A DNA stretch of 64,000 nt. Source: Nereocystis luetkeana. Its lineage: Eukaryota; Sar; Phaeophyceae; Laminariales; Laminariaceae. A model generated the notes under the pieces. It had not been told where the DNA came from. It did no database searches and was given only the letters and a program-made list of their open reading frames with translations. The stretch spans positions 4,239,114 to 4,303,113 of the forward strand of contig JARUPZ010000034.1 of NCBI GenBank assembly GCA_031213475.1, given 5' to 3'. Shown one piece after another: positions 2,057 through 42,762 of the stretch (the first letter of the stretch is position 1; the number at the start of each line of letters is the position of its first letter). Made by a program: the position numbers and the translations under genes.

Positions 2057-2350
2057 CTAAGTTCGTGCACGCTTTCCAGCCCCGCCATCGTCAACATCGC
2101 CACCACCACCACCACCAACGTCGCTACCACCCCCTCCCCCCTTCCCCTTCCCAGCCCCCGCCTCCTCCATCGCCGCCGGCCGCTTCGTGCCGGTAAAAGA
2201 AACGTCACCCGTGACAGCCGCGGGTTCTTCATCGTGTACTTGCCCCCTGTCGCCGTCTCCCCTTTTCTCCGCCGCCTCTTTGTTGTTATCCCCTCCTCCC
2301 TTCTCCTCCTCCTCCTGTTCTTCTTCCGCCAGCTGCGTAAAGTCGAACTC
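2057..2350 (-). CDS. CWF19L1: Gene 1 exon 19: EFDFT end and acidic/Gly tail, stop
   Basis: Residues 759-855 and stop. EFDFTQL equals the C-terminal 'FEPYDFTLDD' of the family. A non-conserved tail follows: an acidic EEEQEEEEK run, then TKRPAAMEEAGAGKGK, which looks like a weakened nucleoplasmin-type bipartite NLS, then Gly/Asp repeats and GKRART. Acceptor GAACAG|GAG. Confidence 0.9.
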   Translation of the reverse strand, partial: EFDFTQLAEEEQEEEEKGGGDNNKEAAEKRGDGDRGQVHDEEPAAVTGDVSFTGTKRPAAMEEAGAGKGKGGGGGSDVGGGGGGDVDDGGAGKRART

Positions 2351-5300
2351 CTGTTCGGGTAGAAACGCCGGGGGGGGGGCAAGGGGGGATAGTGGAGGGA
2401 AGGGAAGGGAAGGGAGGGGGGGCAGGGGGTGAGTCAACGATCGGTACAGCAACAGGAAAAGGACACGGAATGGAAGGGAATGACGGATGCGGGGGGAGGG
2501 GGGATAAGTCGAGTGTTGGTGCAGTTACTACGCTGTTTATCCTACTCCTATCATGAATACTACTCACACTACAGCTACTTCTACCCAAAATACTCATCCT
2601 ATTTCTACTACAACTATTGTACAACTAATACTACAGTAGTTCTACTGCTATTCTTATTGCTCTCACTCCTAATACTCTACTACCATTACTGCTACTGCTC
2701 ATACTACTACTTATTTTCCTGTTCCTCCAGGCCTCACGCGCATGCTCTACACCACTATTCCGATACCCACCAAATGGCACGCTAAGTAGCCTGGTCGGTG
2801 AAAACCCGACGTGCTCCGTCCCGGCATTGTAGGGATGCGAGGGTCTATGGTCATACGACTAACCATGAATGATAAAGAGTACACCCCTCCCCCCCCGTGC
2901 TCCGTCTCGAAAGCAATGCGTGGTCAATGGTCAAATGACCAAGGCAAGCAACAAATGAGTACCCCCCCCCCGCCCCCGCCCCCCCTCCCCCCTCCAACCC
3001 CCGTCCCCTAACCCCTCCCTGACCTTAAACGCCTCTTTGAAAATATCAGCTTGGAGAATCTCCTTGGGTTTGGGCAACGCGCAGTGCCTCCAGTGGGCTC
3101 GCTCCGGCATACTCAGTAGCCTCGCCGCCACATCCCTCCCGAACTGCAGAGGAACGCTGCGGCGCCGCCCATGGAGGTCGGTGTTTCCACCCTGTCCACG
3201 GCGGCGTTATTATGCGGCGCAAAATCACCACCGAAATGCGGCCCAGACATCATTAAAACGCGCCGCAATTGTCGTCGTTGAAAAAAAAGACGCGGGTGGC
3301 GTGGGATGGGGAGAAGGAAAAAGGGGAGGGGCGGGGTGCGGTGTACAGGTTTCACAGAGGGAGGGGAAGGACGGGGGGGGGGGGGGGGGGCGCGGGGGGG
3401 GGGGAAGAAGGAGGGGAAGGAGAGCGAGGAAGTTGAAGGAGGAAGAGAGGAGAACGGGGAGGAGGGAGGAGGGAGAGGGGAGGGAGGAAGCGGGAGGAGG
3501 GAGGAGCGCGGAGGGAAGAGGGAGGGGGCAGGAGGGGCGGGTGAAGCGCGAGGCAGGAGGAGAGAGATGGGAGACGGGAAGGGGGGAGGAGGGGAAAGGA
3601 GGAAAGGGGAAGAAACGGGGGGGGGGGGGGGGGGGGGACGAGGGAGGGGGAGGGGGGAGGTACGCTTAGTGACCTGGCAGAGAACGCCAAGCAATGCAAT
3701 GGCATGGGGCCTAATGCTACGAACTAGGGGTGTACCTTTTTCCACAGGTCGGATACATCACGACGTATCTGTCTACAGATAGATCATTTACACCCTAACC
3801 TGCCGTGGTGGTACACATCTGACCCAGACATAATGCCCTATAGATCACGCAGGTTAACTCGGCTGTCACCAGGCCACATGAGCTAGATCATACAGATCAT
3901 ACAGATCATACAGATCAGGAATATATCTGCCGTGAAAGATTGCCTGTCCGAGGTATGTATGCAACCCTGACAAAATACGACGGAAAAAAAAACGAAGGGG
4001 AAAAAAATAACAAAATGTGGGCTTGAAAAAAAACAACTCAAACGCTTGCACCAACTATTTCTGGGGACTATGGTAAATAGGACCAAATATCGTTAGTAAA
4101 AATAGGCAAATATAGAGGCTTTTGGGTGTACCGTAGGTCGTATTTACTATGGTCCCCCGTAACAGACTGATGTACGTACCATCCTCAAAAACATGGTACC
4201 GGTTTCCCGTGATGGCGAGAAAATAGATACAGAAACACACCATGTACCAGGTACCTGTTTTAACATCAAGAGCGTGGGCAACTATTACGGGGGGCCATAG
4301 TTAATAGGACCTATGGTATACATAAAAATCTATATATTTAACCATTTTTACTAACAATATTTGGTCCTATTAACTATGGTCCCCCGTAATAACGCGTCCG
4401 GATACTAACGCGTCCGGATACAATACGGACAATGGCCGTCTCTACTACTACTCCCCCGATTTTCTCGATAGGAACAGCCCCCAAGTGCACCCCCCCCCCC
4501 CCCCCCCCCCCTCCTGCCTCTCTTCCTCCCTACCTCCCCCCCCCTCACCCTCCATGCGACTCGCTCAACACCTCAAGACACTTCGCAAAGCTTGGTGCAA
4601 GAAAACGATGTCTGCCTGGTCGGTGAATACCCGACGTGCTCCGTCCCGGCATTGCAGGGATGCAAGGGTCTATGGTCATACGACTACGGCCACGCATGAT
4701 AATGGGTACACCCCTCCCCCACCCCCTGCCTCACCCGTGGATCCCTGCCCCCCCCATCCCTACCCTCCCTCCCTCCCTCTCTCCCCCCCGTTTCCCCTCC
4801 TCCTCCCCCCCCTCTCCCTCCCTTCTTCCCTTCCTCCTCAGCTCCCCCCACCCTACCCCCTGTTCACCTCCCCCGACACCCGCCCCCCACCCACACAAGC
4901 CCAGAGGGCTGTCTACACGGCAACACAGCAGTAGGTAGCCCCCTTTGCGGTACCCCACGACAGGAAAAAGCGGTACCCGAAAAAGGGACATCAAACACAT
5001 TCGCGCACAGTTTTTTTTGCCCGCTGTTAACCGTAAGGGGCCGGTAGCAACTCTGATAATAAAAGGGACGTTGGTGTTGTAACGGGGGACCATCGTTAAC
5101 AGGACCTACGGTATACACAAAAACCTATATATTTGCCTATTTTTACTGACAATATTTGGTCCTATTAACTATGGTCTCCCGTAATAGCTACTGTCGGATA
5201 TGGGATATCGTATGGTATCGTATCGACGGCTTTGATGTATCGATATTTATTTATCGAATGTATCGATCGCATCGCACGTGCTTTTGCCCTTCATCCCCTG

Positions 5301-8268
5301 TGGCATAGACCCCCGTAGTGCTCTGTATGCAGGCTTTGAACGAAAAAAAACTTCCAGCCTTTCAAAACACATCGAGATCTTGATTGATCCGATCGATCGA
5401 TCGATCGAGTAGATTTTTTTTCTTTCTTGCTATTCGGTGTGGTATTGAACTACCAGGTACTATTTAATACTACTAATTATTAATTGGGTCCCTTCACGCT
5501 TTCCAAACTGGCGTCCAGTTTTGGGGACGAAAAATGCTTGGAATTTGAGTGGTAAAAACCGCTATTTACGGGGGACCATAGTTAATAGGACCTACGGTAC
5601 ACTCAAAAACCTCCATATTTATCTATTTTTCCTAACAATATTTAGCCCTACTTACTATGGCCCTCCGTAATATGAATTTGAGCGGTTTAGTACCCGAGAC
5701 GGGACTACTGCAGTCTGTCCCAAAAAGGGTTACAAGAGACTGCCTACCGCTGTAATGTACGTACCTCGGCGACCCTGTGGATGAGCCTGACCCTGCTCCC
5801 CACCACGTCTCCCGGCAGCTCGGCGTAGAAGTACTGGCCCTCTTTCAAGGCCTCCTTCAAGTCAGCGTCCGGAGACACCTGCCCGTCACGTATGGTTCAC
5901 CACCGTCTTCGTTAACCACATTTTCACAAACCACGTTCATCACCATATTTTTCAATACCGTGTTCCAATACCATGTTTTGAGCACCATGTTTGGTTACCG
6001 TTCGTTGGGTAACATGTTCCCCGTAGTCATACCAGGGAGGGGGGGAGGAGAGACTCTGCTGTGTGACCCAATGGCTGATCTGAGATACCACTGTTACGGG
6101 GGGGCGTAGTGAATAGGACCGAATGTGGTTATTACGGGGGACCATAGTTAACAGGACCTATGGTACAAATAAAAACCTATATGTTTAACCATTTTACTAA
6201 CAATATTTGGTCCTGTTAACTATGGCCCCCCGTGATAGTAAAAATAGCTATTTAAATAGGTTTTTGTGTGCACCGTGGGTCCTATTTACTATTTAATATG
6301 GCCCTGCGTAATGTCAACTGGAGGGAGCGAAAAAATGAAGGGCGAAAAAATCATAAATCGGATGGGACGAAAACAAAAAACAAAAAAACATCTTAATTAC
6401 CATTTTCAGTACCATTTTCAGTACCATTTTAATTACCATGTTCGTTACAGCTACGAGTGCACACACAGGTACTACTGTATGTGTTAGAGCTATAGCTATG
6501 CGCGGAAAACGGCGGGACTCGGCGTCTTTTGCCTCTGTTCGGCGCGTTTTCAATTTGTCAAGGGGGGCCATAGTGATCAGACTCCACAATGGATGCAAAA
6601 GGAGAGGGAAATGGTTGACACTCCTGCGAGAAAATGGTTGACACACACTGTGTACGAGACTGGCAGCAGCTAAGCCTAACCCCAAGCCAATCCGAGCAAC
6701 CCTTACCCTGACCCTGAGCCAATCAGAACAGTCCTAACCCTGACCCTAAGCCAACCAGAGCCACCCTCACCCTGACCCTAAGCCAAACAGGGCAACTCTC
6801 GCATGAGTGCTACAAAGCTCCATCACGGGGGACCATAGTTAATACCAGGTATGACCAAATATTGCTAATAAGAATGGTTAAATATAAAGGTTTTTATGTA
6901 TACCATAGGTCCTGTTGACTATGGCCCCCCGTAATACAGCAAAAAGAAAGGTATCGCTATGTTAACGCAGCATCGTTCGTTCTGGTTGCCATGTTCCCCC
7001 GTCGCAGCGAAGCCAAAAGTCAAGTCGGTCGGTTTACTTCGTCACCCAGCGAATAACTAGCCGCGAATACAGTCAAGGTCGCAGCCCTATCAAACCTGTA
7101 TTTGGTCACTTGTCCCCCCCCCCCCCCGAACACCCCATTGCTGTCTCTGGAAGTGACCACATCAGGAAAAAAATGTACCCACATAATTCGACGCTTCCAT
7201 CCATTTCCAAGAAATTCCGCCTCACAGTCGGTTCTCAGTGCGATGCAGCTCAAACCCTACATGCGACCCGCCCAGCACCTCACGGCGCTTTGCAAAAGCT
7301 TGGTCCAAGCAATGTTTTATGCCTGGTCGGTGAAAGCCCGACGTGCTCCGTCCCGGCAGCGTAGGGATGCGAGGGTCTATGGTCACACGACTACGGCCAC
7401 GCACGACATGAGTATGCCCCCCTCCCCCCCCCCCTCCTCCCCTACACCCAAAATGCCTCCAGCAAATGTGATAACATTCTCCTGTGACCCATCACTATTA
7501 AAAAAAGTCGCTTGTACGAGTATACACGCACCTCCGTCTCTAGGCCGCACAGCAAAAAAACCCTAACCTCCTTCACTTGTCGGGGTAAAAAAACTACTCA
7601 GAAGTAGAACGGGAATTTCTAGGCAGTAGGGGACGGGTTAACCGCGCCTTCCGCCCCATCCCCACGAAAAACACTGGGAGAAAAAAGACAAGACAAGACC
7701 AGCCGAGATATAGCAGAGCAACAACACCACCACCACCACCGCCAACGTCAACACTGCCACCAACACCACATGACCACTAACATCAACACCACCACCACCA
7801 CACGCCACCACCACCACCAACACCACCACCAACATCCCCACCCTCAAACAACAACCACAACAACAACCACACGCCACCACCACCACCAACACCACCACCA
7901 ACATCCCCACCCTCAAACAACAACCACAACAACAACCACCACCACCACCACAACAACAACAGCAACAACAACCAACACCACCAACACCAACACCAACAGC
8001 AGCAGCAACAACAACCAACACCAACAGCAACAACAACCAACATCACCAACACCAACAGCAACAGCAACAACAACCAACACCACCAACAGCAACAACAACC
8101 ACCACCACCGCCACTACCAAGACCACCACGCTTGGCTCACATCCTGGAAGGACATGCCGTGTCTCGTCCCCTCGGAGCGCATGAGTATCCTGGCTCCTCT
8201 CGACGCCTCCCCCGTTGGGATCGGCACCGCCTGAAACAAAACGAACCAATCCAAACACAAACGAAGAC

Positions 8269-8309
<41 letters not shown>

Positions 8310-11300
8310 AGGGGGGTTGGGTCGTGCAGAAGGGAGGGGGCGGGGGGGGTGTACTCATTATCATGTATGGCCCGTAGTCGTATGACCATAGACCCCCGCG
8401 TCCCTACAGGGACGGAGCACGTCGGGTTTCCACCGACCAGGCAGACATTGCTTTTGCTTGCACCTATTAATAGCGCGAAGCGCCGTGAGGTGTTGGGCGA
8501 TTTGCATGAAGGGTGAGCTGCATCCTACTAAGAACCGCTTGTGAGGCGGACTTGCATATGGATGACAGCTTCAATGAGTTGCTTTAATTTCCGGCGTAGG
8601 CACTTCCAGAGACAGCAATGGGAGTACTATGTAACTGCCTCTAGGGTGCCTTACCTTGAACACTACGTGATACGATCAATTCCCTTGCGCGGAGTAAAGG
8701 TTATTTACCTCGCACAAATGATCTAACTCGACAACCAGCTGTGGGCGACCGCCAAAAAAACAAAAACAAAAGACGGTACCCTGGTTGTCTAGCGAGGGGG
8801 GGCAATCGGTATCATGTATGGCCCATAGTCGTATGACCATAGACCCTCGCATCCCTACAATGCCGAGACGGAGCACGTCGCATTGTTTTCACCGATCAGG
8901 CAGACGTTGCGTGAAACCAAGCGCGAAGCGCCGTGGGGTGCTCGGCGAGTCGCATGAAGGGTGAGCTGCCTCCTAAACTAAGAACCGCTTGTGAGGCGGA
9001 CTTGCACATGGATGACATCTCCAAATAATTACCTTAATTCCCCGGTGCGGCCAATTCCAGGGAGGGGGAGGGCTTAGGCAGCACGGGGACAAAAAAGGAG
9101 CGTTCCCGATTGGAGCGTGGGGGATAGGTGAGACTGGGTGAGATACAAATATGACGTTTTGGGGAGTAGGGGTGAAAAATGTAGGGGGGGTAGGGGGAGA
9201 AAAAAATCGAAAGGCACGTCGACCAATCAACGCGCGACGCTTGTCTCTCGCCTGAATGTGCAGGTGGTGGGCTCCCTTGGTGGGCACGCAGCGCTCGAAG
9301 AAAAACGGCTCGCACGCGCAGCTGTAGCAGTACCTGCATCAGTGTGGTCGGTGAATCCCGTCGGTTGATGCAGTCGGTCGGTTGGTTGGCCGAGTTAGTC
9401 ATTCAGTTGAGTCGGTCGATCAGTCAGTCGATCAGTGGGCCGCCCGGTAAAGTCTGTCCGTATTTTTCGGTTCGGTATTCAGTCTGTCGGTACACCTAGT
9501 TCGTCGGTCGGTCGATTACTATAGACGGTCGGCCCACTTAGCTAGTCGGTCGGTGGGAAGATTATCAAGTCGAACGGTAGGCTGATCATTTCGATCGGTT
9601 GGTCGGTCAATTCCTTCGGTCAATCGGTCAACTTGGCCAATCAGTCGGTCGACTATTCGGTCGGTCGGTCGGCCGGCTTTATCACTTCGATCGGTCGGTC
9701 GGTTGACTCAGCTGGTCAGCTGATCAACTCGATCGGTCCGTTAATTCGTTCGGTTTTACTGCCGGTCGATTAGTAGGTAGGTCAATCCATCGTCCGGTCG
9801 AAGATGCTGCCGGCCAGGCGATCGACTGGTCGGTCCATCTGTTGGTCATCAAGCCGATCAGTCACTTGGTTGGTTTGACAATTGGTCGGTCGGTCGATCG
9901 GTTCTTCGGCCCGTTAGCTCAGTCGATCGGCTGGCCAGTCAGTACGGTCGGTTCGTATTAGGACGATCAATTCAGTTGGACAGTCGGATATTGGGTAAGT
10001 CAATAAGTCAGTCGACCGGTTGGTCAGGTACTCGGCCGGTAAAATCAGTCGACCAGTCGACCATTCGATCGGCCAGTTGGTCTGTTGGTCGATCATAAGA
10101 TCGTTCGGAAGGCTTGATTGGTTGGTCGGGCGATCGGTCAGTCAGCCAGGCCGTCAGTCAGACAGTTAATCACTCAGTCAGTCGGCCGTGCGATGGTCGG
10201 TCGGTAGGTAGGTAGGTCGGTCAGTCTGCCGGTCGAACAGTCAGCAAGACATGATGCCACCTACCAGGTATTGGCTGAAACACGCGCGCACATGCACGCA
10301 TTGCACAATGCGAATAGCTCTGCGCAAGCAGCGGAAACATTCAAACAAGTGCCACGATACAAGAAAAAAAAAAAAAAAACTTACACCCTCTTCTTTTGCG
10401 TTGCGAAGCGCCATCCAACACGTAAATTTATATTTTCAAGCGGTTCGTCCCGTATTCATTTTGGTGCCTGCAACAAATAGAGGAATGTAACTATTGATAC
10501 CACTCTGTCCCCACATATAATACTCGCTAGCATAAATAAGTACATATATATTCAAAAGGTGGTGATAGAACACGCGCGGCAGACGTATCACGCAGCCTTC
10601 AACCCTGAGCGAATCAACCACGCGATCGGCCGAACTCACAGCTGGCCTGTTTTGGAATAATAATTATTAGTAAAACACACACACACCTGCTGAAGGAGTC
10701 CTTGTACCGCTCGGCCTCCGTGACCCCTTCCGTCGTCAGCTCGCTGTACCGCTGCTGGTGGGATACAGGCACGATCAGCACGTGACCCGGAACGAGGCCG
10801 CCCTGAAGAAAACAAGGAAAAAACAAAAACAACCAACAACAACACCACCAACGACAACAGCATTAACACAAACCGAACAATTTAAACAATCCAACAAAAC
10901 AGAATCCGCATATATACAACAACAGCAACAACAGCAGCAGCAGCAACGACAACAGCATCAACAACAAACCGCACGATTTCGACAACCCAACAAAACAGAA
11001 TCTGTATATATATACCACAGCTACAACAACGGCAGCAGCAGCAGCAGCAGCAGCAGCGACGACGACAACAGCATCAACATAAAACCGAACAATTCAAACA
11101 ACCCAACAAAACAGAAGCCGTATATATAGAACAACAGCAACAACAGCAGCAACGACAACAGCAACAGCCTCAACAACAAACCGAACGATTTAGACAACCC
11201 AACGAAACAGAACCCGCATATACCCAACAACAGCAACAACAACAGCAGCAGCAACCACAACGGCAACAGCATCCACAACAAACCCAACGATTTAGACAAC

Positions 11301-14300
11301 CCAAACCGAACAGAATTCGTATTATATATACGAGTACACATAACTTAAAAACAACAACGAGCCACGCCAGCAACAAAACCAGAACAAAAATATGCAGAGC
11401 GTTTACTTGAAAAAAAAACAAAAAAAAAACAGAACAAAAAAACAGTGGAAAAAAAACAAAACAAAACATCAAAACAAAATGAGCACAAGATAATAAGCAG
11501 GACGGAAAAACAAAAAAAGGGCCTGAAAACAGAACAGAAAACATGTTGAAAATACTGAACAAGGACGAAACATCAGACGCGCCATGGCGGATCGCGCATT
11601 CTAGGCTCGTCTCTACAGCTATTGATCGTACATCTTAACCCTTTTAGAACCGCACTCCCATTTTCGGGACAAAACACTCTAATTAAAAGTAGTTTGTCCC
11701 CAAAACGGGCTGGGGTCCTAAAAGGGTTAATGGCAAGTCTGGCTGGTGTGAAAAAAAAACACGAACGAGTGACGTTAGTGTGGTGTTGTGTTGCGTGGCA
11801 TATGGTGTGGTATGGTATGCTGTATATGCGGTATGGCATCGTGTGGTGTGGTATGGTATGGCCTGCTACAAATGCGGTACGGTGCGGTGCGGTATGGTAT
11901 GGTATGGTATGGTATGATATGGTATGGTATGTTTTGGTCTCAAACACGGTGACGACAGACATCAATCAACACCCGATACCTGGGAGACAACAGCCAAAAA
12001 AACAAAACCAGCCAAATTGACAGTATACACATACCAGGTATGACAAGGCCCAAGAACACGACACAAAAGACATCTCATATGAAAAAAACGTTGGACAACA
12101 ACAACAACAACAAAAAGACAATACCAGGTAGCCAATTGCCAACACCTGATATACTAGTAAATAACCAATATCTGGCAGTCAATAGCCAACAGCCGTGATC
12201 TTGACCGAGACGCCCACCTTCGGCTGGGCCAGATAGATCTCGTCCGCTACGGAGCAGACGAGATGGTCTTCGAGCTGAGGAGAGGCCAGGCAGAACCAGC
12301 ACTCTTGGCGCGGGTCCGCCTCGTGGTGGCCGGCCTGCAACCCCCGTTTTGACCACGGAAGGGTTTTGGGTGTAAGTTGGTTTGATTTTGGGTGCTAGTT
12401 TTGGTTTCGGCTTTAGTGTTGGTTTCGGCTTCTGGTGTTGGTTTCCGCTTTGGTGCTGGTGTCGGTTTTTGGTGCGGGTTCGTTATATCTTGGGTGCTAG
12501 TTTTGGTCTCGGTTTTGGTGTTGGTGTTGGTTTCGGTTTTTTGGTGTTGGTTAGGTTGATTTTGGGTGTTCGATTTCGATGCGGGTTACTTCGATTTTGG
12601 GTGTTAGTTTTGGTTTCGATTTTGGTGTTGGTGTTGGTTCCGCGGCTCTGGTGTTGGTGTCGGTTTTTGGTGCGGGTTTGTTTGATTTTGGGTGTTAGTT
12701 TTGGATTCGGTTCTGGTGTTGGCGTAGGTTTTTGGTGTGGGCTAGTTTGATTTTGGGTGTTGGTTCTGGTTTCGGTTTTCGGTGTCGGTGTTGGTTTCGG
12801 TGTTGGTTTTGGTTGCGGGGTTGGTTTCGGTTTTGGTATTGCTGTCGGTTTCGGTACACAGGTATGGTTTGGGCTTTGGTTGGATTTTGGACTTTGTTTT
12901 GTTCTGTTATGTTTTGTTTGGTGCTGTTTTCACAAAATCGTACAAAAACGTCAGCTGTGAGTACGACCGATTGAACGGTTGAAACTCAACTCCGCAAGCT
13001 GCGAAATACGCCAGACACGCTGGTCGGGCGTGCTTGTTCATCACATTTGAACCGTGCTTTCTACCCGTCGACATCCAGCACAACCAGTGTCCGTGCCGAT
13101 TCTTCAACCCTAAGAGAGGTACAAGTTCTGTGCTCACAAAACTACGCCACAGAGATGCTACATCATTACGTACCACGTATCCAGTAAGCAGAGCAGACAA
13201 TGCAATAGTAGTTGTCATTCAGTCCCGTCAACTTCATGGCAAGTCGTCTGCGCGTGCTCTGTGTACTCAACCATCATGCAAGGATGTACCGCAGTTCGGT
13301 GACTCCCCTGGATGCTACCAGGGTCTAGTTTCCGTGTTACACGTACAGGCTATATCGTGTTTTGGTTCCGTTCGGCTCATTTCGTGCGGGATTAATTCAA
13401 TCCGTACATATCTTTGCGCGGGTCTGGTTTGGTTACCTCCGGCTCGTTCCACATCCCATCTCACCAGAAGGGTCCAGCTGCAGCCTGCTGGTGCGTAGCG
13501 CCACACGATACACGCATCAGCATGTGCGAGGCACGGAAAGAAAGAACCGCTGCTAACGGCCCCTACCCCCCCCTCTGACCTCTCCCCTCCCCGCCCTCAA
13601 CGAAAACAAAATAAACAACCGGAGGGAAACGGACAGCGGCGCGCTAGGCCTCCCAGGGCGCGACAAAACCATCACCACGACGACGAGCGAGCGAAGCCGC
13701 ACGCGCCACCAATGACAAGAACGGTCACCAACCACAACCCTTAGATGCCCAGGATAAACGGACGACAGAACGATCAACACGACGGCTAGCGAATGAAACC
13801 GCGCCGCCACCACAAGGACGGTTACAAAACACGCCTGAACAATCAATACCTTGCCGGCCCACTGCCCTCCGCCTTCCGCCGACGCCACCCCCACCGACTC
13901 GGGCTCCTGCCTTGATCTGGCCGGGTTCACCTTGCCCCACTTACAGCTCACCCTGAAGTTCTGGAAACCGCCGGAAAGGGAGGGGGGCGGTAGGGGCGGG
14001 GACGGGTACTCATTATCATGCATGGTCCGTAGTCGTATGACCATATACCCTCGCATCCCTAAAATGCCGGGACGGAGCACGTCGGGTTTTCACCGAACAG
14101 ACAGACTTTGCGTGCACCAAGCGCGATGCGCCGTGAGGTGTTGGGCGAGTCGCATGAAGGGTGAGCTGCATCCCACTACGAACCGGTTGTGAGGCGGACT
14201 TGCACATGGATGACAGCCTCAAGGCGGTTTGGGGGGGGGGGGGGAGACGGGATGGGGGTGGAGGATGGAAGGGGGAGGGGGCTAGGTGACCGGAGGGGGG

Positions 14301-17300
14301 GGTAGGGGAAGGGGGGGGGGGGGCATACCCATGCCATTCATGGCTATAGTCGTATGAGAATATGCCCTCGTATTCCTACGATGCCAGGACGGAGAACGTT
14401 GGGTTCCCGCCGACCAACCAGATATTGCTTGCATCCAGCGCGAAGCGCCTTAAGGTGTTGGGAACGGGTCGACTCGTCGCGTTCCGACTGAAAGCACAAA
14501 CCCCCGAACGTCTTCTACTGTTGACACAGCAAATACGGATGACATTATCACTTCCGTGTTCAAAGCCGACCAGAAGGGAAAACGTGGGAACAAAAAAAAT
14601 AACGCAGGTAAGGCAGCAAACAAACGCGAACGAACAAAAAAACAAAAAAACAAACAAACAAAAAAACAAGAACGGAAGGAAGGAAGGAAGAAAGGGGGGG
14701 GGGGGGAAGGAAGGAAGGAAACCGAGGAGGGAATAAAAAAACAGGAGGAACTAAAAGGGAGAAAGGAAGGAAGTCAGAAGAGGAAAAAGGAAGGACAGGA
14801 AAAAAGGGAGGTGAACAGAAAAGGAAGATAAAATAAAAAAACGCAAGATCGAAACGCAATGACTAAACCAGAGGGAGAATAAAAAAAGGGCAACACAGAC
14901 GGACGGCGGGGCGGGTTTTGAGCCAGACGTTTACAATTCAACGTACCACAAAGGACATCTGGGGTCTGTGGAGCGGGATTGAGTTTCAACAAACATGGAA
15001 GGCGTGTTTGACCAGGGAATACCAGGCACATCGGAGTACGAGGGAGAGAGCGAGTCTGGCTGAGGTTTAGTATAACCCTCCTCTCACCTTGATCGCGCCA
15101 TCAGCCATCGATTCGATAGCCCTGGCAGCCACCTCGTGCGTCGAGAACTCTACAAAGGCGTACCCCTTCTGCGTCATTCGCACCTGTTCACAGAAGAGAG
15201 ACAGGAGAAAAACATGTAGGGGGGCGTGCGCGGGAGGGGGGGGGGGGGGGGGGGGTACTCGATAGGAGAGATGTACTCGATCTCATGCATGGCCGTAGTC
15301 GTATGACCATAGACCCTCGCATCCCTACAATGCCGGGACGGAGCATGTCGGGTTTTCACCGACCAGGCGTACTCACTTGTTGCTTGCCTTTGAAGTAATT
15401 TGACCATCGACCACGCACCCCTTTCGAGACGGAGCACCGTTCCTAGCGCCGTTACTAGCGCCGTTCCTACTTCTGATTAAGAGACACCTCCAACATTGGG
15501 GCGCTCATGACGTTTTTTTTCCCATGAATTACGTGAAAAAATAAAAACGCTTGTCATATCACCTTCCTGTTTCGCCGTTTGTGGCCTCTACCGGGGGGGG
15601 GGGGGGGAGGGGTGTACCCATCATCATGGGGGAGGGGGGGGGAGGGCAAGCATTATTCGAGGTTTTGTAGTGAATATTCGGGCTGCTCATCTGTGCCTGT
15701 GATCGCAAATCCCCCCCCCCCCCCCCTCCCCCTCCTCTAACCTGCAGATCATACGTAGCTCGTGCGGTTGGGTGGGCAGTTCCCCCCACGTCCAGCTCAC
15801 TCTTTTTACAGCCTTCGCCTACCAGAAAAATCGACGCGTTGTACTCATTTGTCAAGCAAGGCTGTCGTCGTATGGCCATACCATAGACCCTCGACATCCC
15901 GGAACAATTCCTGGAAAAAATCGGGCCTGCCTCACCTCAACGATGTCCACCACCTTGCACCCGGCGGACACGAACGCCTCCCTGAGGTCCTGCACCGTTA
16001 CGCTCCCCTCGGTCTTCGGAAGGTTTCCAATGAACACGTTTCGATTTTCTGGGTCCACCGGGGGATCGCCCCCCCTGTCCCCCCCTCCCCCCCCAGCCGC
16101 GTAAGGGGACGCCCCGTGAGAATCCCCGTGCTGCTGGGGACGTCGCTGCGACGTGGGGTAAGGGAGGGAGGCGGAAGGGGTGGGGGGCGAGGGGGGGGGG
16201 GGGGGGGGGTGTTGCAAAAAACGCGATGCTTTTGAGTCATCACGTGGACCACCTTTGAGAACCGTGCCCACGGGTCGGGTAGGGTTATTGCAACTGCAGA
16301 CACGTTTCGGGAGCGCAGATCATCTACAGGTGAATGATCTACAGATAGATCATCAACAGATAGATCGTCTACAGATAAAGGTCTTCTACAGACAGATCGT
16401 CTACAGATAGATCATCTACATATGGATTATCCACACACGGATCATCAACAGATAAAGCATCAACAGATAAATCATCTACAGATAGATTATCAACAGATAG
16501 ATCATCAACAGATCGTCTAGACAATCGAAAACGTAACCTGCCCTTTACGACATGTCGTGCAGGGATCTGTCCCGTACCGATCCCAACCGAGGAAACACGT
16601 CACTATTGTACAGGGAATCATTCCAAAGTTATTCGGCTGCCGCACGACAACAAGAGCTGTGTACCGTAGATCGAAAAATCATGCAGATCAGGCATCTATT
16701 TATCTGCTCTCCGATTTATCTAAATCATGCGGTGGGAGTTGATGATCTCGTGCCAATACAGATCAGCAACCTATCGGCCCTGAAAGGTCTGGGTCATGCA
16801 GTGGGAGTCCATTCTCTGCACGAGGTGTGATCTACATCGAACTAGTGTTGGCCAATAGACGCGTTTTGGGAGACAAACCACGTGGAAATGGAGGGTTTCC
16901 CCACCCTAAATAGTCCGTAAAAAACGCCTGCAACTTCCACGACTGACTCCACGCCGTCTTCTGGCTCGCCCACTCTTGAAGAAAACCCGTTCGCAGAACG
17001 CCGCCACTGCCATGGCAAATCCGACTGCAACCCTTCGCCGCACCGAACCGCGACCGCACCGCCCCGTCCCGTACCGCACCGTACCTTCGTACCGTGCCGC
17101 ACCGCACCACACCACACCACACCACACCGTACCGCACCCTGCCGTACTGCACCGTACCGCTTTGCACCGAACCGCACTGTACCGTAATGTACCCCACCGC
17201 ACCGAACTGCACCATACCATACCATACCATACCGCACCGCACCGCATGGGACCGCACCGTACCACGCCGTACCGAACCGCACCGCACCGCACCGCACCGC

Positions 17301-20300
17301 ATGGGACAGCACAGCACCGCACCGTACCGCACCGTGCCGCGCCGTACCGCACCGTACCGCACCGTACCGTACCGTACCGTACCGTCTTGTGGTTGCCCCA
17401 CGTGAGGCGGATCTGGTTCCCCCCCACGCCGAAGCCTTCCATGGACGCAATGGCCCTGACAGCGTCCTGATGCCTCTCGAACTCGACGAAGCCAAACACG
17501 CTGCCCGGTGTTATGCGTACCTGATTTTTAAGAAAAAAAAAAAAAAAACACGTACAAAAAACAAAAACCGTAGAAGACACAAAAACAAAAAGCAAAGGAG
17601 AGGGAGGGGAAAAAAACCATCTCAAATACCCTAACTACGGTAGATGTGTACCCCGTTCGTCTATTCCCTGGGTACCCGACGGGTAGTACCCGGACGTGTC
17701 ACGATCCGCGCGGGATCGAGTGATACTCAACGCCCGCCGGGTATTGGGAATTGGACCCGGGTATCCGGCTAAAATATGTATACCCCCGTTCGAAGCATCC
17801 CTCCCCCATACTTTCGAAAACCTGTAGAAACAATATTGACTGACGAAAAGGTCAGGGTTTTCAACGCGCACACACAGACATGTGGTTTTTGTAGAAAAGG
17901 GGGGAGAGTTCACACCCGGGTACCCAGGGTACACGGGTACCCGACACGAGCAGGTACCTGGGTACCGGACATGAGCAGGTACCTGGGTACCGGACATGAA
18001 CGGAACCGGTACCCGGGTACCCGTTGCCGGTACCCGGGTACCCGTTATACTTTCGTTCGGGGTCGGGTGTATTCCACTTTGATTCGGTGCTGGTTAATTA
18101 TCGTGCCGGTGTGAAATTGTGGTTCTCCCCTTGCCATGCCGCTTTCATGCAGTAAACAGCACTGTCTGTTGTCCGGGTACCCGGGTACCTGGGTACCCGC
18201 AACCCGGGTACCCGCACTACCCGGTGTCCAGGTACCCGACGGGATACAACTCTTACTATATTTATGATTAAGAAGTAAAACGGACAAAACGAACAGAAGT
18301 AATACTCGTGAAAAAAAGAGAAAATAAGACGTGTGTGTGTGTGTGTGTGTTTTTTTTCAAGTGGATCGAGAAAATGAAACGAAAAAAGAGAAAGCAACAT
18401 CAAAACAAGACACAAACACAAAAAAAAAAAGACAATGATGCAACGGAAATTAGAGAAAACGAAATGAAAAAAAGAGAAATAACATGAAAACAACTCAAAA
18501 TGCAGGGATCGCTCAGCCTGAGCAGTGAGCGGGCGATGCCTGGCACAATACACCACCACCACCACCGCAACCCAACTCACCCCGTTCAACGGTCCCACGG
18601 CACCGAATAGAGTCTCGAGCTGAGCAGCCGTTACATCTCCCGACCTCAGGTTTCCGACGAAAACTGTTGTGTTGTCGGGGTTAACCGGCTGAAGACGGAA
18701 GACAAAAACAGCAGCAAAACAAACACCGACGCACACACACACGAGCGCACACAAGGTCGGGGCAGCGGTAAGGGGGAGGCTTAAAATTCTTCGGAAAAAA
18801 ACGGTCGGTCGTGTAATCGGTCGGTCGGTTGAAATTTATCGGAAAAAAAGTCGGTTCGATTTATTTGGTCGGTCGTTTAAACGGTCGGTTCCATTCCGTC
18901 GGTCGATTCCGTTGGTCGGTCGGTCGGTCGATCGGTTCAATATATTCGGTATCTTCTCAACCTATTTTTGGCCCGCCGGTCGGTCGGTAAATCGGTTCAA
19001 TTTATTCGGTGTATGTTCGATTTAGTCGGTGCGCCGATCACTAGGGATATGTTCAATTCCGTTGGTGAGGTAACAGGCAGTCCGCGTACGTACACGTCTG
19101 GTATCGTACCTGATTCCTGTCACTCTAAACGTGCACTATATTAATGATCAGAAAGTAGGCGGGTTGGCTCTGATGCCGCCCGGTCGGTGAATCGGTTCAT
19201 GATATCAGCTGGTCGGCCGCTTCAATTCGGTTGTCCATGCGTGCAATTTTCCGTCGGTCGATCGATCGATCGGTGCAATTTGGTCGGCCGACATCGATCG
19301 GTGCAATTTGCAATTCCGAGTCTGTTGCAGATACCACACATAGCATGCGCGGCTTGTTTTTAATCGTTTTTTTCGTATGCCCCCCCCATCATTCAGAGCT
19401 CGAGCCTGCTCTCCTCGTGTCCGTGGGTACACGTCGGATACATCTCGATCTACTGCAGACATGTAGATAGATGATGTAGATAGATAATGTAGATATATCA
19501 CGTAGATAGATCATGTAGATAGATCATGTAGCTAGATAATGTAGATATATCACGTAGATAGATCATGTAGATAGGTCATGTAGATAGATCATATATACAG
19601 GTAATGTAGATAGATCATGTAGATAGATCATCTAGACAGATCATGTAGATAGATCATCTAGACAGATAATGTAGATATATCATGTAGATAGATCAAGAAG
19701 ATAGATCATCTAGACAGATTATGTAGATCACCTGGATCCCACCACCCACTACATTCACAAAATTAGAAAAAAAAAAAACAACAACAACAACACCAACACC
19801 AACACCAACAGCTGTGAGATAATTGAGGATTTGGTCGAAAACTCACCTTTACAAGCTGTGTGTGGTAGGTTCTTCGATCGCGCGTGCACACGTACTACGT
19901 ACAGGTTTTCTACGGCCTTCTCCCGCAGGAAATACAGCAGCCCGTACATGAGGAAGACAAAATCGGAAAAGCTGCGGAAGTCGAGGAGTGTGTATGTCCA
20001 TATTTGGGATTAAAGAACAAACGAATTTCCGAGGTTGCGCGTACACAGCAGTATAATAGCTTGCTCCTATAGCGCAGATCTAACCAAGGAAACACGCGCG
20101 AGATGATACAGACTGCCGCTGTGGGGGGGAATATAAGGACCGTTTCGACATCCAATATGAAAGCAAACAGTTTATTCTATTCCACCCGTCAACATGAGCA
20201 ATCCGTAGACCATAGACAGGCACAAAAGAAAACATCTGCCCTGTTTAAGACACTTGCCTCTCTTGTCCCGAAATATAGTGAACACTTCTATACTAATATT

Positions 20301-23300
20301 CAACACAAAATTTCATTACATTTAGGGACAGAATGGTACGTCTCTGGCCAGAATTGTAAGGAATAGACACCTATCTCTCTTCTCCCGAAATAGAGTGACC
20401 ATTTCTATACTAACTTTCAATACAAAATATCAATATATTTAGGGACAAAGTGGTACGTCTCTGGCCGGAATTGTAAGGAATAGACACCTACCTCTCTGTC
20501 CCGAAATATAGTGAATATTTCTATATTAATATTCAATACAAAATTTCATTATATTTAGGGACAAAGTGGTACGTCTCTGGCCGGAATCGTAAGGAACAGA
20601 TACATACCTCTCCCTGTCCCGGAATATAGTGAATATTTCTACACTAATATTCAATACAAAACTTCATATATTTAGAGACAGAGTGGTACGTCTCTGGCCG
20701 GAGTTGTAAGGAACGCTGGGGGTGTAGGCATGAAGACCAAACATATCCTTACTAGTTAAGAGCTGAATGTCTGTCCGATGTGTGTTGGTTATCAGCCCCG
20801 CCTTTGGCAGAGGAAGGAGTGAGAATGGACGCACACCATTTTGACACTAGAAACAAACCTAACGTCTGTCGATGCTATTTTATTAGATACATAATGTGAC
20901 ACCGATTTTCCTTGCGCTGGTCGTCATGCCTTTCGTTCCAAGAGGGGGGGGGGGGTCTGCTGTATACATGTATAGACTTTCAAAATTCAACAGCTGGTGG
21001 GTCTTTCGTCGTTTTTATTAAAAAAATGCATAAAAAACGAAAAACAAAAAAAGTCGTCGGTGTTCACCTTGCGTCACCCCCGCCTCTGAACGCCTCCGAA
21101 GGGAAACCTTGTCGCATCTACCTTTACAACCCCTTCACAGCGCCTACTGTAGAAAAAAAGAGAAAGTTCAGGCCGTTTCTTTGGCGATACTAGTTTGAGG
21201 TTCAAAGGTGGTTGATGAGGCTCAAAGATGGTTGCTCAGGTTCCAAGATGGTGGATGAGGTTCAAAGATGGTTGATGAGGTTTCAAAATGGGACCCTGTT
21301 GTCTCTTTTGCTGTTCGTCGGGCTTGAGGGGGAACAAGTCGAACGTAAGCGCCGATTACAGCATCGTCCACACACCAATCACCCCCGGGCTGATGGAGCA
21401 CAATGGTCGACGCAACCAAGGTACATATACCGCACGCATGCAGCATGCTGATTGATACTCGTGCTGCTGCTGCTGCTGCTGTGCGCTCTTCCTGTACATG
21501 TACGGATGATGACATCGCACTTATCGTGGTTTCGGTCGATACCTGATACAATCAAGTCAGTAGGGTGGATCTATCAAGAAGAAAACAATATGCACGCACT
21601 CACACACTCAGCCTCCCCCCTCTCCCCTCCTCCCCCCCCCTCCCCCCCCGACGACCGCAGCAGCGTCCCCAAGCTCTCTCCCCCCCTTCCTCCGCTCTCT
21701 ACCCCCCCCCCCCTCCTCTCAGAAGTAGGAAAGGTGCTCCGCCTCCAGAGAGGTGCGTGGACAATACTAAATTGACTCAAGGCAAGCAACTAATGAGTAC
21801 GCCCACCACCCCCCCCCCCCCTAACCCGCCTCCCACCTCTCTCGCCCGCACCCCCCCCCTTCAACCTCTCCCACCCCTCTACCACCCCCTCCATCCCCAC
21901 TCCCCACCCTTAGCGCCTTTGTTTTACTCACCCCAGACTGCCCGCCGCCTCGGCCGCGTCCCCCCTGCCCTCCCCTCCCCTCCCCTCCCCGCCCGCCCCA
22001 AAAAAACATCCCGGAGTCGGCACGCCTTCCGTCTTCCTGCGCGGAAATCCTCGACGCCCACGCCTTGTCCCCCCCCCCCTGTCGAACGAAACGTAATGCA
22101 AACAGCGACACGAAGCCCCGTGTATGCGTGACAACAGCACGATGAAGATGAACGTAGTATAAGTAAGTGGCTGTTTTAACAAGAATTCCGGTGAATAGCA
22201 GGTTTCGTAAATACCTTGCAGGCCCCATCAGGTACTGGTACCCGGTACATTATTGGCACTGCGAAACGTTGGGCAGACTACATATAATTCCAAGAGTTTT
22301 GTCCCCCGTAAATTATAATTATAGGCACACACACGTCCTTTGAATTCTGCAGCTTCAGATTTCGTCTTCTTCACATGCGGGATGTAAATCCTGCATGAGG
22401 CCGTACGAAACTCGTAGTACGCGCGATTCGAAATACGAGTGGCGTGACTAGAGTACGACACACGGCTTGCAAACTTGACTTTCGACAAAACCCTCGATCT
22501 CGCAGCTGATGATTTTGTTCTTTTCAAGTTTATAAATAACGTGTGTGTTGTTCTTAAGGGGGAAACGAATACCAACATTACCACCAGCACCAACACCAGC
22601 ACCAACACCAACAACACCAACACCACCAGCACCACCAACACCAACAGCACCAACACCAACACCAACAACACCAACACCACCAGCACCACCAACACCAACA
22701 GCACCACCAACACCAACAGCACCAACACCAACACCAACAACACCAACACCAACACCAACACCGACACCACTAACACCTACAGCACCAACACCAACACCAA
22801 AATCACCACCCCCTACACCCACCAACACCCCCCCCCCCCCCTACCACCCACCCTCACCCACCATCGTCACCCCCAACCCCCCAACATACCTGAACACCGC
22901 CCCCCCGACCGCCTCCGCCACTCCCGCCCGCCCCGCCCAGAACCTTCCTCGCAACATAGGGGCAGTCGGTGGTGTCGGCGGCCCTCCTCGACAGCTCGTC
23001 CTTCTTCATGAAAGCGATAGGCTCGAGGTTGAGAGCGTGAATCCACTTTTTCGTCTTGTCCTTGGGCACAGCCAACCCCTGCGCTAGCTCCCCGAGGGCG
23101 ATGAATCTGTGCACCGTGGCGCGTGGGTTGGGGGGGGGGGGGGGGGGGGTTGGAGACAGGGGTGGAGGTAGGGGTGGGGGTGGGGGGAGAGTGGGGACGG
23201 GGCGGAGGGGTGTACTCGATATCATGCACGGCCGCAGTCGTATGACCATAGACCCCTCTCATCCCAGCAATGCCGGGACACGCGGACTCATTATCATGCA

Positions 23301-26300
23301 TTGGCTCTAGCCGTATGACCGTGGACCCTCGCATCCCTACAACGCCGGGACGGAGCACGTCGGGTTTTCACCGACCAGGAGCGTGTGAGGTGGGAGTTGG
23401 TGTGGGGGTGGAAGGAGCCGTGGGGGCAAGGGCGGGGGTTGGAGTGGGGGGAGGGGTGAGGGCTGGAAGGGGAAAACCGAGCCACAAGAAACAAATTCCA
23501 GCGTTTGGAAAAAGGCCATACTGGTACCTTTGTAGGGGGGGGGGGGGGGGGGGGGGAGGGGGGAACCCGGGTATCTAAACTGTCCAGGGAAAACAAGACT
23601 AAAATCCAACAGGTACTCTGGCTCATCTTTTTCGGCGTTCCCAAGACATCAGAGAAACTTACCGCGTCGTGTGCGTGCAGCCACCGGCGGCGGCTGCTGC
23701 GGAGCCGTAGTTGCGGTAAGGGGGACGCTGGAAGAACACCCCCTCCGACGCCGCGAAGTGGTATCTGGGCGGTGCGGGGTTTGGACAAGGGTGAGGCATG
23801 GCGCACCGGGAAAAATGTGCATCGTGAGAAAAAGCAGCACAGGACAGGACACGTACAAAATACGTAACAAGCAACGGGGCTGCTGGTCCTGGCTAGAAGC
23901 GGGGCAAAAAAAAAGACAATACTAAAAAAGTGGCCAAGCAAATACGACCAAAATACACGAAAATACACAAAGAACACGAGCACACACGGAAGAACGACAA
24001 GCACTTCCGAAACAAAGAAGCAAGCAAACAAAACAGAACAGAACAGAACAGAACAAAACAAAGCAAAAATCGAACATGCGAGTACCGGACACCAGACACA
24101 CGAAAAACACACACGAAACACACAAAAACACACGCAACGACCCACAGTAAAAACACACAACAAACCCACACGAAAAAACACAAAACAAACCCACACAAAG
24201 GGAAAAGGACACAGGAACACACAAGACAAAAACACACACACACAAACACACACACACAAGAAAAACACTCAACACGAAACAAAAACGTCCAAGAAGGCAA
24301 CAAGCCTCCGACGTCACTGACGCCATCACACCTCGGCTTCACCGTCACGGCCAGCTCCGCCACCGCCTCGCTCCCCACGGCCGCAGGGGCCACCCCCAGC
24401 TCCGCCAGCTCCTTGAAGCACCGCTCAGGAAGGTCGACCTCCATGCCTCGACCCCACTCAGAGGAGAGAAGGACGTCCGCCCCGCCATAGCCGGCCATGG
24501 TGGAGATCTTGCGGCAAGTGTCCAGGTCTGCGCGCCGTCGCGACGCGCAAAGAACAAAAATGACAAGGCATACCGTACATTCAGAAAATAGAAAGGGAAC
24601 AAAACAAAAAGAAACGAAAAAAAAAAAGAAAAGAGTAGGAAGAAAAAACATGATCTGTGACTGACATCGAGGCTTTCGCCGAAGCTCATATTTGCAAGCT
24701 TCGTGTGATACGTATTAGTTGTACCGCTACCGTATTTTCGATCCAAGCGTGCCACATGCAGGTTGTGTATGTGGCCTCGACACCTGGTCTACGGTAGCTT
24801 GAAACCACTGTATGTGAACATGTGCTACGATAGATCATGCCGACTATACGGCTCCCACGCGGCAACATGTTCTAGATCATACAGATCATACAGATCATAC
24901 AGATCATAACAGATCATACAGATCATACAGATCATACAGATCATACAGATCATACAGATCAGGGATGTATCTGCCCTGGGGAGGACCTACAAGAAATCAT
25001 GACGTGGTAACCGACCATCTGTCGGATGCGTGAAACGGTACAAGAAAGACACGCCGCATATAGGCGGAACATTTTACTGTACTCTTCAAAAAGGCAACCG
25101 TACCACACGGCGGGAAGGGTGAGTGTGTGAGGGTTGGCGTTTTCACCTTCTTGCTTGTGGGTCGGCGCCAAAAACGCCACCGTGAGTTTTCCAACGGTCT
25201 TGATGCCTCCCCGGCCCAGGTAGAACAAGTTTTCCGCCACCTGCTTGACAGCCGCTGCGGAAAAAGAATGTCGGCAGATCCGAGGCGTGTACGGTACGTA
25301 AAAAGGAGGGGGGGAAAGGGGGGGGGGGGGGGGGGGACGGGATGAGTAAGGAGAGAGACGAGGAGAAGAGCCGAGGTTACAAAATATGAAAAAAAACAAA
25401 AACAAAAACGGACGGACGCAGGGAGGGAACGGGGTGGCGTCGGACAGACGGTGAGAAACAAAAAAAAAACTGTCGAGGGTGGCAGGGTGTGATGTTGAGG
25501 TGAGTCCACGAGGACGGAAGCGTCGCCAAAAAAAAATACCACTGGCATGATGCAACTAGCCGAAAAGTACACCAAATGGGGGAGGGGGGGGGCGTACTCA
25601 TTTATTGCTTCCCTTAGTCATTTGGCCATTGACCACGCATCCCTTTCCGGACGGAGCACGGTTTCTGCTCCCAACAGAGACACCCCCGACAGTTGGGCGT
25701 TCACACGTTGTTTCCATACCACATAGACTTTGTTGCTACTATTATCCCGTTCCTGTTTCGCCACTCGTGGCCACCATTTACCTCCTAGGATAGCAATCGT
25801 TTTTTTTTTCCCACTACTATTAAATTTCGTACCAAATTTCTCCATCTCACATTCTTCTGTTTTCCTCACCTCCTTCTCCTCTCTCAACACATCCCGTTCC
25901 TCCTTGTACATTTCACATTCTCCAACTACGTGAGCTCTACTCTTCACTGTTTGACCACATGGGACAACATCTGTGCATCTATTTCCTCCTCCTCCCGGCT
26001 ACTGGGTATACCTCTTTCTTCTTTCTGGCAGGTGGTCCCAGGTCCCCTACACTAGATCGCAGTTTCACCCAAAAAGCAGAACCAGTACGTACCAGATACA
26101 CTATTTTTACGGTGGTCTTAATTGTGCGAAAAATATGTAACACAACGTTCGGCTTACAGGAGTGTTCCTCCAGCTTGGCCGACAGGCTGCTAGATTCCCC
26201 CGCATCGAAGAAGTAGACCGGCACAGCGGGAGGCGTTTCGCCCGCGAGGATGGGGGACAGTCCCGCTTCGTCTCCGGATGACGTCAGCGGCCCCACTACG

Positions 26301-41351: not shown

Positions 41352-42762
41352 TCAAAAAGAGGCGACCCTTCGAATAGGCGCGTCTCCAAGGAACGGCAGC
41401 GGAACCTTGCCGCTGCGTGCGCTCTTCCTGTTGTTGAGCGCTACCGACCCCCTCTCGGCCTGCCTACAAAGACCCGCCCCCTCCCTGCCGCCGCCGTCGC
41501 AACCATCGACAAAAACCGCACTGGGAACGGACTTCGCCCTTGTCGTGGCCGCCGCCGCTCCCGCGAGATACGGGGGCGACTTCGACAACCCCACTGCCGA
41601 TGACGCCGATTCTGCGATTTTCTCCACCACCCGACCGTTACCACTGCGATTGCTCACACGGCCGGATGCCGGCGTGGACGCCGATGCGCAGTCCTTGGTT
41701 GGGTCACCGCCTGATGCGCCGTCGTCCGATACGCCGGCGCCGTCTCCGACGCCTTTACTGCTATCACTGGCTGACGATCCCCCCGAAAACCGCCATGGTT
41801 GAACCCGCCCTTGCCTGCGCGGTGGTGTCGCCGTCGCGGTTGTCGCTGCAGCGGCAGTGGCGACGGTAGTGGCAGCAGTGGTAGTAGTATTCACAGTCGT
41901 AATTGGCTCCAGCACCGTCGCTACCGAAGCCGCCGCCGCCGCCACGGTCGCCACGATCGCCACAGCCGCTGGGGGGGGAAGAGCCTTCGGCGCCGCGCCA
42001 GACTGGTCGATACCAGGATCGAGATTTTCAGGCTCGGCGGTGGCCGCGGTGGCGGCCCTTCGGCTTTCTTCTTCCCTACCGCTGGCGGTCTTGCCGCCCG
42101 ACAGGCCAGCAGCAACGCCCGCAACAAAGCCGCTTCCACTACTGTCACTGCCACTGGTGGTTCCATTGGTGCCACCGGTGGCACTGACATCACCGTCATC
42201 ACCCCTGGTGGTGCTACTGGTGCCACTGATGTCACTGTCACTGTCACTTCCACTGCCACTGGTGGTGACACTGGTAACGCCACTAGTGTCACTGGTAACG
42301 CTGCTGTTTCCGCTTTCGCCGCTGCCCTCGATGACGAGGGAATGGCGCCGTTCCTGTTCGGGGGTGGGCGGCGGTGGTGGAGGCGGCAGCGATGGCGACG
42401 GAAGCGCCCGTGCCGCCGACGAGCAGACACCGCTGTCGTCAAGCAGCACGCCCGGGGATGTCCCGACACCCCCCCCTGGTGTGATCGGGGGTAGGGTCGA
42501 CGACGATGACGACGGCACCGAAGTTAACGGTGATGACGAGGCACTCCCTGACGTTGCAGCGAGCGTCTCGACCGTCACCACTTGGTTCTGCTCTACTTCC
42601 ATGCGGTGGCTTCCCACCTCCTGTCCGGTCACTTGGTCTTGCTTTCCTTCCGTGTGGATACTGGCCCTCGCCTGTCTCGCCATCTCCGCCTCAATCTTGT
42701 TCCGGCAGTTCGCCTCCTGGTCGATCACTGCTTTCTCCCGCGCTGCGATTATGTACGCACAT
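41352..42762 (-). CDS. Gene 2 exon B, to stop
   Basis: 469 codons plus stop. It starts at CTCAG|ATGTGC. The N-terminal 60 residues are mixed and helical (REKAVIDQEANCRNKIEAEM) and the rest is low-complexity Ser/Thr/Gly/Ala/Pro. The frame remains open upstream of the proposed acceptor through a CCCAA/CTCTA repeat, so the 5' edge could differ. Confidence 0.55.

What the first reader, a model, noticed from the sequence alone, without database searches (positions are those of the whole stretch)
12218..18688. Two RRM domains built into a CWF19L1/Drn1 lariat-debranching cofactor
Seen: the exon chain runs uninterrupted in phase from a CWF19L1 phosphoesterase-like N-terminus through two full RRMs (RNP2 VFVGNL/VFIGNL; RNP1 SVFGFVEF/KGYAFVEF) into the ECWFCLASP CwfJ domain. 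Known: human CWF19L1 and yeast Drn1 have no RRM there; plant relatives carry a CCCH finger in that region. Inference: a lineage-specific architecture that lets the cofactor bind intron RNA directly, with RRM-A resembling RBP45/Nam8 type RRMs that read U-rich intron sequence.
Basis: partly seen in the sequence, partly recalled or inferred. Interest (0 to 1): 0.8.

Follow-up and report, generated by a model that had tools for sequence, protein, structure and literature searches.

The report
Lariat-debranching cofactor with two RNA-binding domains
In what looks like a brown alga, the gene for a conserved protein that helps take apart the splicing machinery and its discarded introns (CWF19L1) carries two extra RNA-binding domains that the human and worm versions lack, so this version may grip RNA directly.

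Summary
On the minus strand one gene model (window 30791 to 2057, 19 exons, 887 aa, ATG to TAG) reads in phase from a CWF19L1 N-terminal half through two RRMs into CwfJ_C_1 and CwfJ_C_2. 17 of 18 introns are GT-AG, one GC-AG. Both ends match human and C. elegans CWF19L1 best; there the linker has 57-58 residues, here about 299. Among 10 outside RRMs compared, RRM-A is most like NAM8 RRM3 (41%) and RRM-B like TIAR/TIA-1 RRM3 (40%). The genome, probably a brown alga, shows one CWF19L1 N-terminal region, one CWF19L2-like gene and a separate NAM8-like gene.

Best reading: a CWF19L1 orthologue that gained an RRM pair in its linker and so can touch intron or snRNA at the lariat spliceosome. RNA binding, transcripts and spread to other lineages are untested; no eukaryote collection was available. 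Exons 7-12 are multiples of three in phase 0, so the insert could be a skippable cassette. A new variant of a known kind.

The parts
30715..30791 (-). exon 1, start codon, MVKVLIAGDVKGS...
   Evidence: aligned to human/C. elegans CWF19L1
26158..26330 (-). exon 2, phosphoesterase-like domain
25147..25254 (-). exon 3, phosphoesterase-like domain
24332..24527 (-). exon 4, phosphoesterase-like domain
23663..23764 (-). exon 5 (YHFAASEGVFFQRPPYRN)
22890..23106 (-). exon 6, end of the N-terminal domain and start of Gly-rich linker; ends in phase 0
21932..22078 (-). exon 7, Gly/Arg-rich linker (no Pfam match)
   Evidence: splice sites, phase 0-0
18581..18688 (-). exon 8, RRM-A first half (RNP2 VFVGNL)
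17383..17520 (-). exon 9, RRM-A second half (RNP1 SVFGFVEF)
15936..16145 (-). exon 10, linker and RRM-B first part (RNP2 VFIGNL)
15088..15183 (-). exon 11, RRM-B middle (RNP1 KGYAFVEF)
13850..13960 (-). exon 12, RRM-B last strand (FRVSCKWGK) and linker
12218..12334 (-). exon 13, ECWFCLASP, start of CwfJ_C_1
10687..10802 (-). exon 14, CwfJ_C_1
9252..9333 (-). exon 15, CwfJ_C_1 with HIT-like HHLHIQ; GC donor
8141..8230 (-). exon 16, CwfJ region
5765..5878 (-). exon 17, CwfJ_C_2
3024..3191 (-). exon 18, CwfJ_C_2 (VPLQFGRDV)
2057..2350 (-). exon 19, end of CwfJ_C_2, acidic/Gly tail, stop codon

Best explanation
This is the algal CWF19L1 (Drn1) orthologue, a spliceosome-disassembly and lariat-turnover factor, in which the short linker between the phosphoesterase-like domain and the CwfJ/HIT-like domain is replaced by a Gly-rich stretch carrying two RRMs most like TIA-1/NAM8 RRM3. 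Shown here: the gene model, the domains, a single N-terminal region found in the genome, and kept RNA-contact residues. Inferred: the two end domains dock on the intron-lariat spliceosome and Dbr1 as in animals, while the RRM pair holds exposed RNA (intron lariat near the branch or 5' end, or a U-rich snRNA tail), so that disassembly or debranching is coupled to direct RNA recognition. The pair may have arisen by capture of one RRM and tandem duplication.
For:: 19-exon frame from ATG to TAG without internal stop. RRM_1 twice, CwfJ_C_1 and CwfJ_C_2 above cut-offs in one protein. N- and C-terminal parts separately match human 8ro2_L1 (2.0e-21; 2.8e-33) and C. elegans 8ro1_L1 (3.6e-25; 2.4e-23); of 10 genome matches to the N-terminal part, 7 are exons of this gene and 3 are weak, so no second CWF19L1 without RRMs was found. 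RRM exons have GC3 0.61-0.86, inside the range of the gene's other exons (0.60-0.89); no N in the window; no in-frame Met between the acceptor of E8, E10 or E13 and the nearest stop upstream; best single-domain matches are NAM8, TIAR and TIA-1 RRM3. RNP2 position 2 and RNP1 positions 3 and 5 are F,F,F in RRM-A and F,Y,F in RRM-B (positions recalled, letters); both RRMs are cut by a phase-0 intron at the same alignment column (before VRIT / VRMT), while RRM3 of the genome's NAM8-like gene is uncut. (PMC10470207, passages): human Drn1 and Dbr1 form a 1:1 complex. (PMC11958768, passages): CWF19L1 is listed among known disassembly factors.
Against: No RNA-seq or protein data; exon choice is mine. 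RRM-A has S instead of a basic residue at RNP1 position 1. In human assays Drn1 did not improve Dbr1 kinetics and substrate inhibition appeared (PMC10470207), and CWF19L1 was absent from one human ILS1 structure (PMC6461851) and not identifiable in the fungal one (PMC11958768). For RRM-B the first hit by whole-chain E-value is nucleolin (6.9e-15), ahead of TIA-1 (1.3e-12). The RRM tree is unresolved (0 of 9 inner branches starred, long branches), and RRM-A and RRM-B each match outside RRMs better than each other, so tandem duplication rests mainly on the shared intron. Twelve of 18 introns are phase 0, so the phase-0 run is weak evidence for exon shuffling. Whether Dbr1 is in this genome is unknown (search did not complete).
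Confidence: 0.55

Rival explanations
1. The RRM exons are a cassette: exons 7-12 are spliced in only in some transcripts, and the main product is an ordinary 617-aa CWF19L1.
For: Exons 7-12 are each a multiple of three and bounded by phase-0 introns; joining E6 to E13 keeps frame and gives 617 aa before the stop.
Against: No transcript data either way; frame-keeping alone does not show skipping, and exons 13 and 16-18 are symmetric in phase 0 too.
Confidence: 0.2
2. The RRMs serve protein contacts or fold stability rather than RNA binding.
For: Some RRMs act this way (recalled); RRM-A departs from the RNP1 consensus at its basic position.
Against: Both domains keep the three aromatic RNP positions (recalled as RNA-stacking), and the solved chains they match are known RNA-binding proteins such as TIA-1, NAM8, poly(A)-binding protein and nucleolin.
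Confidence: 0.2
3. Two or three neighbouring genes, or a misjoined contig, were read as one.
For: Introns of 556 to 4384 bases, with no transcript support. An unseen first exon for a separate RRM gene is not excluded; exon 7 has an in-frame Met upstream before a stop.
Against: All 18 junctions are in phase, 17 GT-AG and one GC-AG; E8, E10 and E13 have no in-frame Met between acceptor and upstream stop; no N in the window; no other CWF19L1 N-terminal part found.
Confidence: 0.05

Closest known systems
CWF19L1 of human and C. elegans (PDB 8ro2_L1, 8ro1_L1)
   Same: N-terminal phosphoesterase-like domain and CwfJ C-terminal part in the same order
   Different: Linker of 57-58 residues there against about 299 here with two RRMs; HIT-like motif HHLHIQ here against HHLQLQ (human) and QHLQVQ (worm)
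Yeast Drn1
   Same: Described as the non-catalytic Dbr1 homologue and partner (PMC10470207, passages)
   Different: Sequence not compared here; lack of RRMs is recalled
NAM8 / TIA-1 / TIAR, RRM3
   Same: RRM-A 41% to NAM8 RRM3, RRM-B 40% to TIAR and TIA-1 RRM3
   Different: Those are proteins of RRMs without a CwfJ part (recalled); the genome keeps a separate NAM8-like gene (L005)
Plant CWF19L1-like proteins with a CCCH finger
   Same: Also an added RNA-binding module, by recall
   Different: Zinc finger, not RRM; not tested here

Membership tests
CWF19L1/Drn1 | N-terminal Dbr1-like phosphoesterase domain | tested here: met
   aligned over residues 2-269 to 8ro1_L1 (3.6e-25) and 3-269 to 8ro2_L1 (2.0e-21). 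Pfam itself gave no phosphoesterase match
CWF19L1/Drn1 | CwfJ_C_1 plus CwfJ_C_2 at the C-terminus | tested here: met
   85.7 bits (cut-off 21) and 45.6 bits (cut-off 28.8); 8ro2_L1 2.8e-33
CWF19L1/Drn1 | closer to CWF19L1 than to CWF19L2 | tested here: met
   CWF19L1 2.8e-33 against CWF19L2 4.9e-8; the other CwfJ_C_1 place, L001, matches CWF19L2 best (1.1e-7 against 0.00096 for CWF19L1)
CWF19L1/Drn1 | binds Dbr1 and the intron-lariat spliceosome | not testable with these tools
   Needs biochemistry; the Dbr1 search of this genome did not complete
RRM domain | Pfam RRM_1 above gathering score, with RNP1/RNP2 | tested here: met
   52.1 and 39.1 bits (cut-off 20.7); RNP motifs
TIA-1/NAM8/RBP45 RRM3 type | groups with RRM3s of that family in a tree | tested here: inconclusive
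   best pairwise matches among 10 outside RRMs are such RRM3s, but no well-supported fork places RRM-A or RRM-B

The most novel reading that the evidence does not exclude
In this lineage lariat disassembly and debranching is guided by direct RNA recognition: a CWF19L1 with a captured and tandem-duplicated TIA-1/NAM8-type RRM pair reads intron or U6 sequence and, through in-frame skipping of exons 7-12, is switched between an RNA-reading and a plain form.
Probability: 0.12. Interest if true: 0.75.

Novelty: new variant of a known kind. Interest (0 to 1): 0.45.

Why it matters
CWF19L1 acts at the last step of splicing and its job is still poorly understood. A natural version with built-in RNA-binding domains would make it testable which RNA this factor sits on, and would give a ready tool for mapping it. 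It would also show that the linker between its two conserved halves tolerates large functional modules.

Tried and rejected
An extra exon around 10411-10385 (ALRNAKEEG) was considered and dropped: I saw no AG acceptor that opens it in frame, and joining E14 to E15 directly aligns to human CWF19L1 without a gap there. A first RRM-B slice began too late; its figures were replaced. A search for a linker motif shared with solved CWF19L1 gave 43 chains up to E 10, the best by glycine runs, and 8ro1_L1 at 0.85 over the N-domain end only. Scans of viral contigs and genome contigs with the CwfJ part gave no relative (5 and 40 pattern matches, none confirmed); these are viral and prokaryotic collections, so this says nothing about spread in eukaryotes. 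NCBIfam gave 9 RRM families, each below its cut-off. Three other window ORFs had no Pfam match.

Paper searches, 10 in all: CWF19L1+RRM+Drn1 1 paper; CwfJ+'RRM domain' 0; CwfJ_C_1 3, of which one passage was read, naming a Plasmodium protein with CwfJ_C_1 and CwfJ_C_2 as DRN1 orthologue (PMC3090354); CWF19L1+zinc finger+debranching 0; CWF19L1+'intron lariat spliceosome' 2; Drn1+Dbr1+lariat 7, 6 listed; CWF19L1+DHX15+TFIP11+disassembly 1; CwfJ+'RNA recognition motif' 1, on RNA editing, listing only; any two of CWF19-like/RRM/stramenopile 37, 15 listed; CWF19L1+'RNA recognition motif' 0. PMC12990809 does not hold 'CWF19' or 'Ectocarpus' in its main text. The 2024 lariat-spliceosome structure paper and Garrey 2014 are not held.
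Full report
What is there. Reading the minus strand by hand and checking it in scripts gives one gene model from 30791 to 2057: 19 exons, 887 residues, ATG to TAG, no internal stop. Of 18 introns 17 are GT-AG and one is GC-AG (after exon 15). The interval of the finding, 12218-18688, is exons 8 to 13, and its ends fall exactly on my splice sites.

Domains. In the spliced protein Pfam finds RRM_1 twice (80 bits in all; alone 52.1 and 39.1 bits), CwfJ_C_1 (85.7 bits) and CwfJ_C_2 (45.6 bits), all above cut-off. The first 277 residues match C. elegans and human CWF19L1 from lariat-spliceosome structures at 3.6e-25 and 2.0e-21, the only 2 chains up to E = 1. The C-terminal part matches the same two at 2.4e-23 and 2.8e-33, ahead of CWF19L2 at 4.9e-8 and the rest of 44 chains up to E = 1. 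In the human chain the two matched parts end at 266 and begin at 324, in the worm at 259 and 318; that leaves 57 and 58 residues, too few for one RRM. In the alga they end at 269 and begin at 569.

One gene or several. All junctions keep frame. Exons 8, 10 and 13 have no in-frame Met between their acceptor and the nearest stop upstream, so no simple start lies there; exon 7 does have one upstream, and an unseen first exon elsewhere is not excluded. There is no N in the window, and the RRM exons have GC3 of 0.61 to 0.86, inside the range of the other exons (0.60 to 0.89); overall intron GC is 0.50. A search of the 465-Mb genome with the N-terminal part gave 10 matches: seven are exons of this gene, three are weak (E 0.02-0.03). 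For CwfJ_C_1 the genome gave two places: this one and L001, which matches CWF19L2 best (1.1e-7, against 0.00096 for CWF19L1). In that search 3 of 14 control genomes also rang over the cut-off, so the family model alone is not specific; the CWF19L1 naming rests. These genome searches score only the best candidates, exon by exon, so short or diverged copies could be missed.

The RRMs. RRM-A spans residues 349-414 and RRM-B about 459-525, with a last strand in exon 12. Against 10 outside RRMs, RRM-A matches NAM8 RRM3 at 41% and the genome's own NAM8-like RRM3 (L005) at 39%; RRM-B matches TIAR and TIA-1 RRM3 at 40%; A and B are 36% alike. Over the whole PDB the first chain for RRM-A is TIA-1 (2.4e-17), then NAM8 (1.7e-14), with NAM8 RRM3 the best single domain of the five chains shown. 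For RRM-B the first chain is nucleolin (6.9e-15), then TIA-1 (1.3e-12), with TIA-1 RRM3 the best single domain of the five chains shown. In the genome search RRM-A gave 3 matches, two its own exons and one L005; RRM-B gave 3, all its own exons. L005 holds two RRMs, the second of which has NAM8 as best solved match (7.4e-21). A 12-row tree did not resolve the origin (0 of 9 inner branches starred). Both RRMs are interrupted by a phase-0 intron at the same aligned column, while the L005 RRM3 is not; this suggests tandem duplication but is a single character.

Phases. Exons 7-12 are all multiples of three, between seven phase-0 introns. This would allow capture as a block and also in-frame skipping to a 617-residue product. 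But 12 of the 18 introns are phase 0, so the run is only mildly unusual.

Organism. The genome holds 150 scored EsV_1_7_cys places, over cut-off, out of 1711 candidates of which only 150 were scored; 0 of 14 control genomes ring, but the three controls named are prokaryotes and say nothing about other eukaryotes. The expansion of this family in brown algae is recalled, so 'brown alga' is an inference.

How it may work. From passages read: human Drn1 (CWF19L1) forms a 1:1 complex with Dbr1 but did not improve its kinetics, while in yeast the interaction is said to enhance branched-RNA turnover (PMC10470207); CWF19L1 is listed among known disassembly factors that copurify with DHX15 in a thermophilic fungus, although it could not be placed in that structure (PMC11958768). 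A human structure paper reports CWF19L2 but not CWF19L1 in its ILS1 complex (PMC6461851). I recall, but could not read, that the 2024 structures place CWF19L1 with DHX15 at U6. My reading is that the end domains dock as in animals and the RRM pair holds nearby RNA. The RNP aromatic positions are kept in both RRMs, which fits RNA binding; which RNA is not shown.

Compared with what is known. It is a CWF19L1 by every sequence feature I could test, with an architecture I did not meet in the ten paper searches. That library lacks most subscription journals, I read passages only, and domain-architecture databases were not searchable here, so the combination may well be listed there already. I therefore call it a new variant of a known kind, of moderate interest.

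Noticed in passing
window 9252-9333: The HIT-like motif reads HHLHIQ here, HHLQLQ in human and QHLQVQ in C. elegans. By recall HxHxQ is the GalT-type triad, so the algal domain may keep a catalytic His that these animals lack.
   Followed up: partly
window 17040-17390: The intron after exon 9 begins inside a short GGTAC/GGTGC-type repeat that offers many GT donors in a row (seen by eye).
   Followed up: no
window 26902-27396, + strand: A 164-aa open frame (DWMGRLERDLSLFNLPTEEKQW...) lies inside intron 1 on the other strand; no Pfam match.
   Followed up: partly
window 41352-42857, - strand: A 501-aa low-complexity open frame (stop to stop) with no Pfam match.
   Followed up: partly
window 789, 2811, 4636, 7343, 8837, 14041, 15307, 23319, 53842, 55421, 55514, 58947: A 40-base word (GTGCTCCGTCCCGGCATTGTAGGGATGCGAGGGTCTATGG) occurs 12 times in the window within 3 mismatches, on both strands, against 0 in 100 shuffles. 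Seven copies lie in introns of this gene; perhaps part of a short dispersed element.
   Followed up: partly
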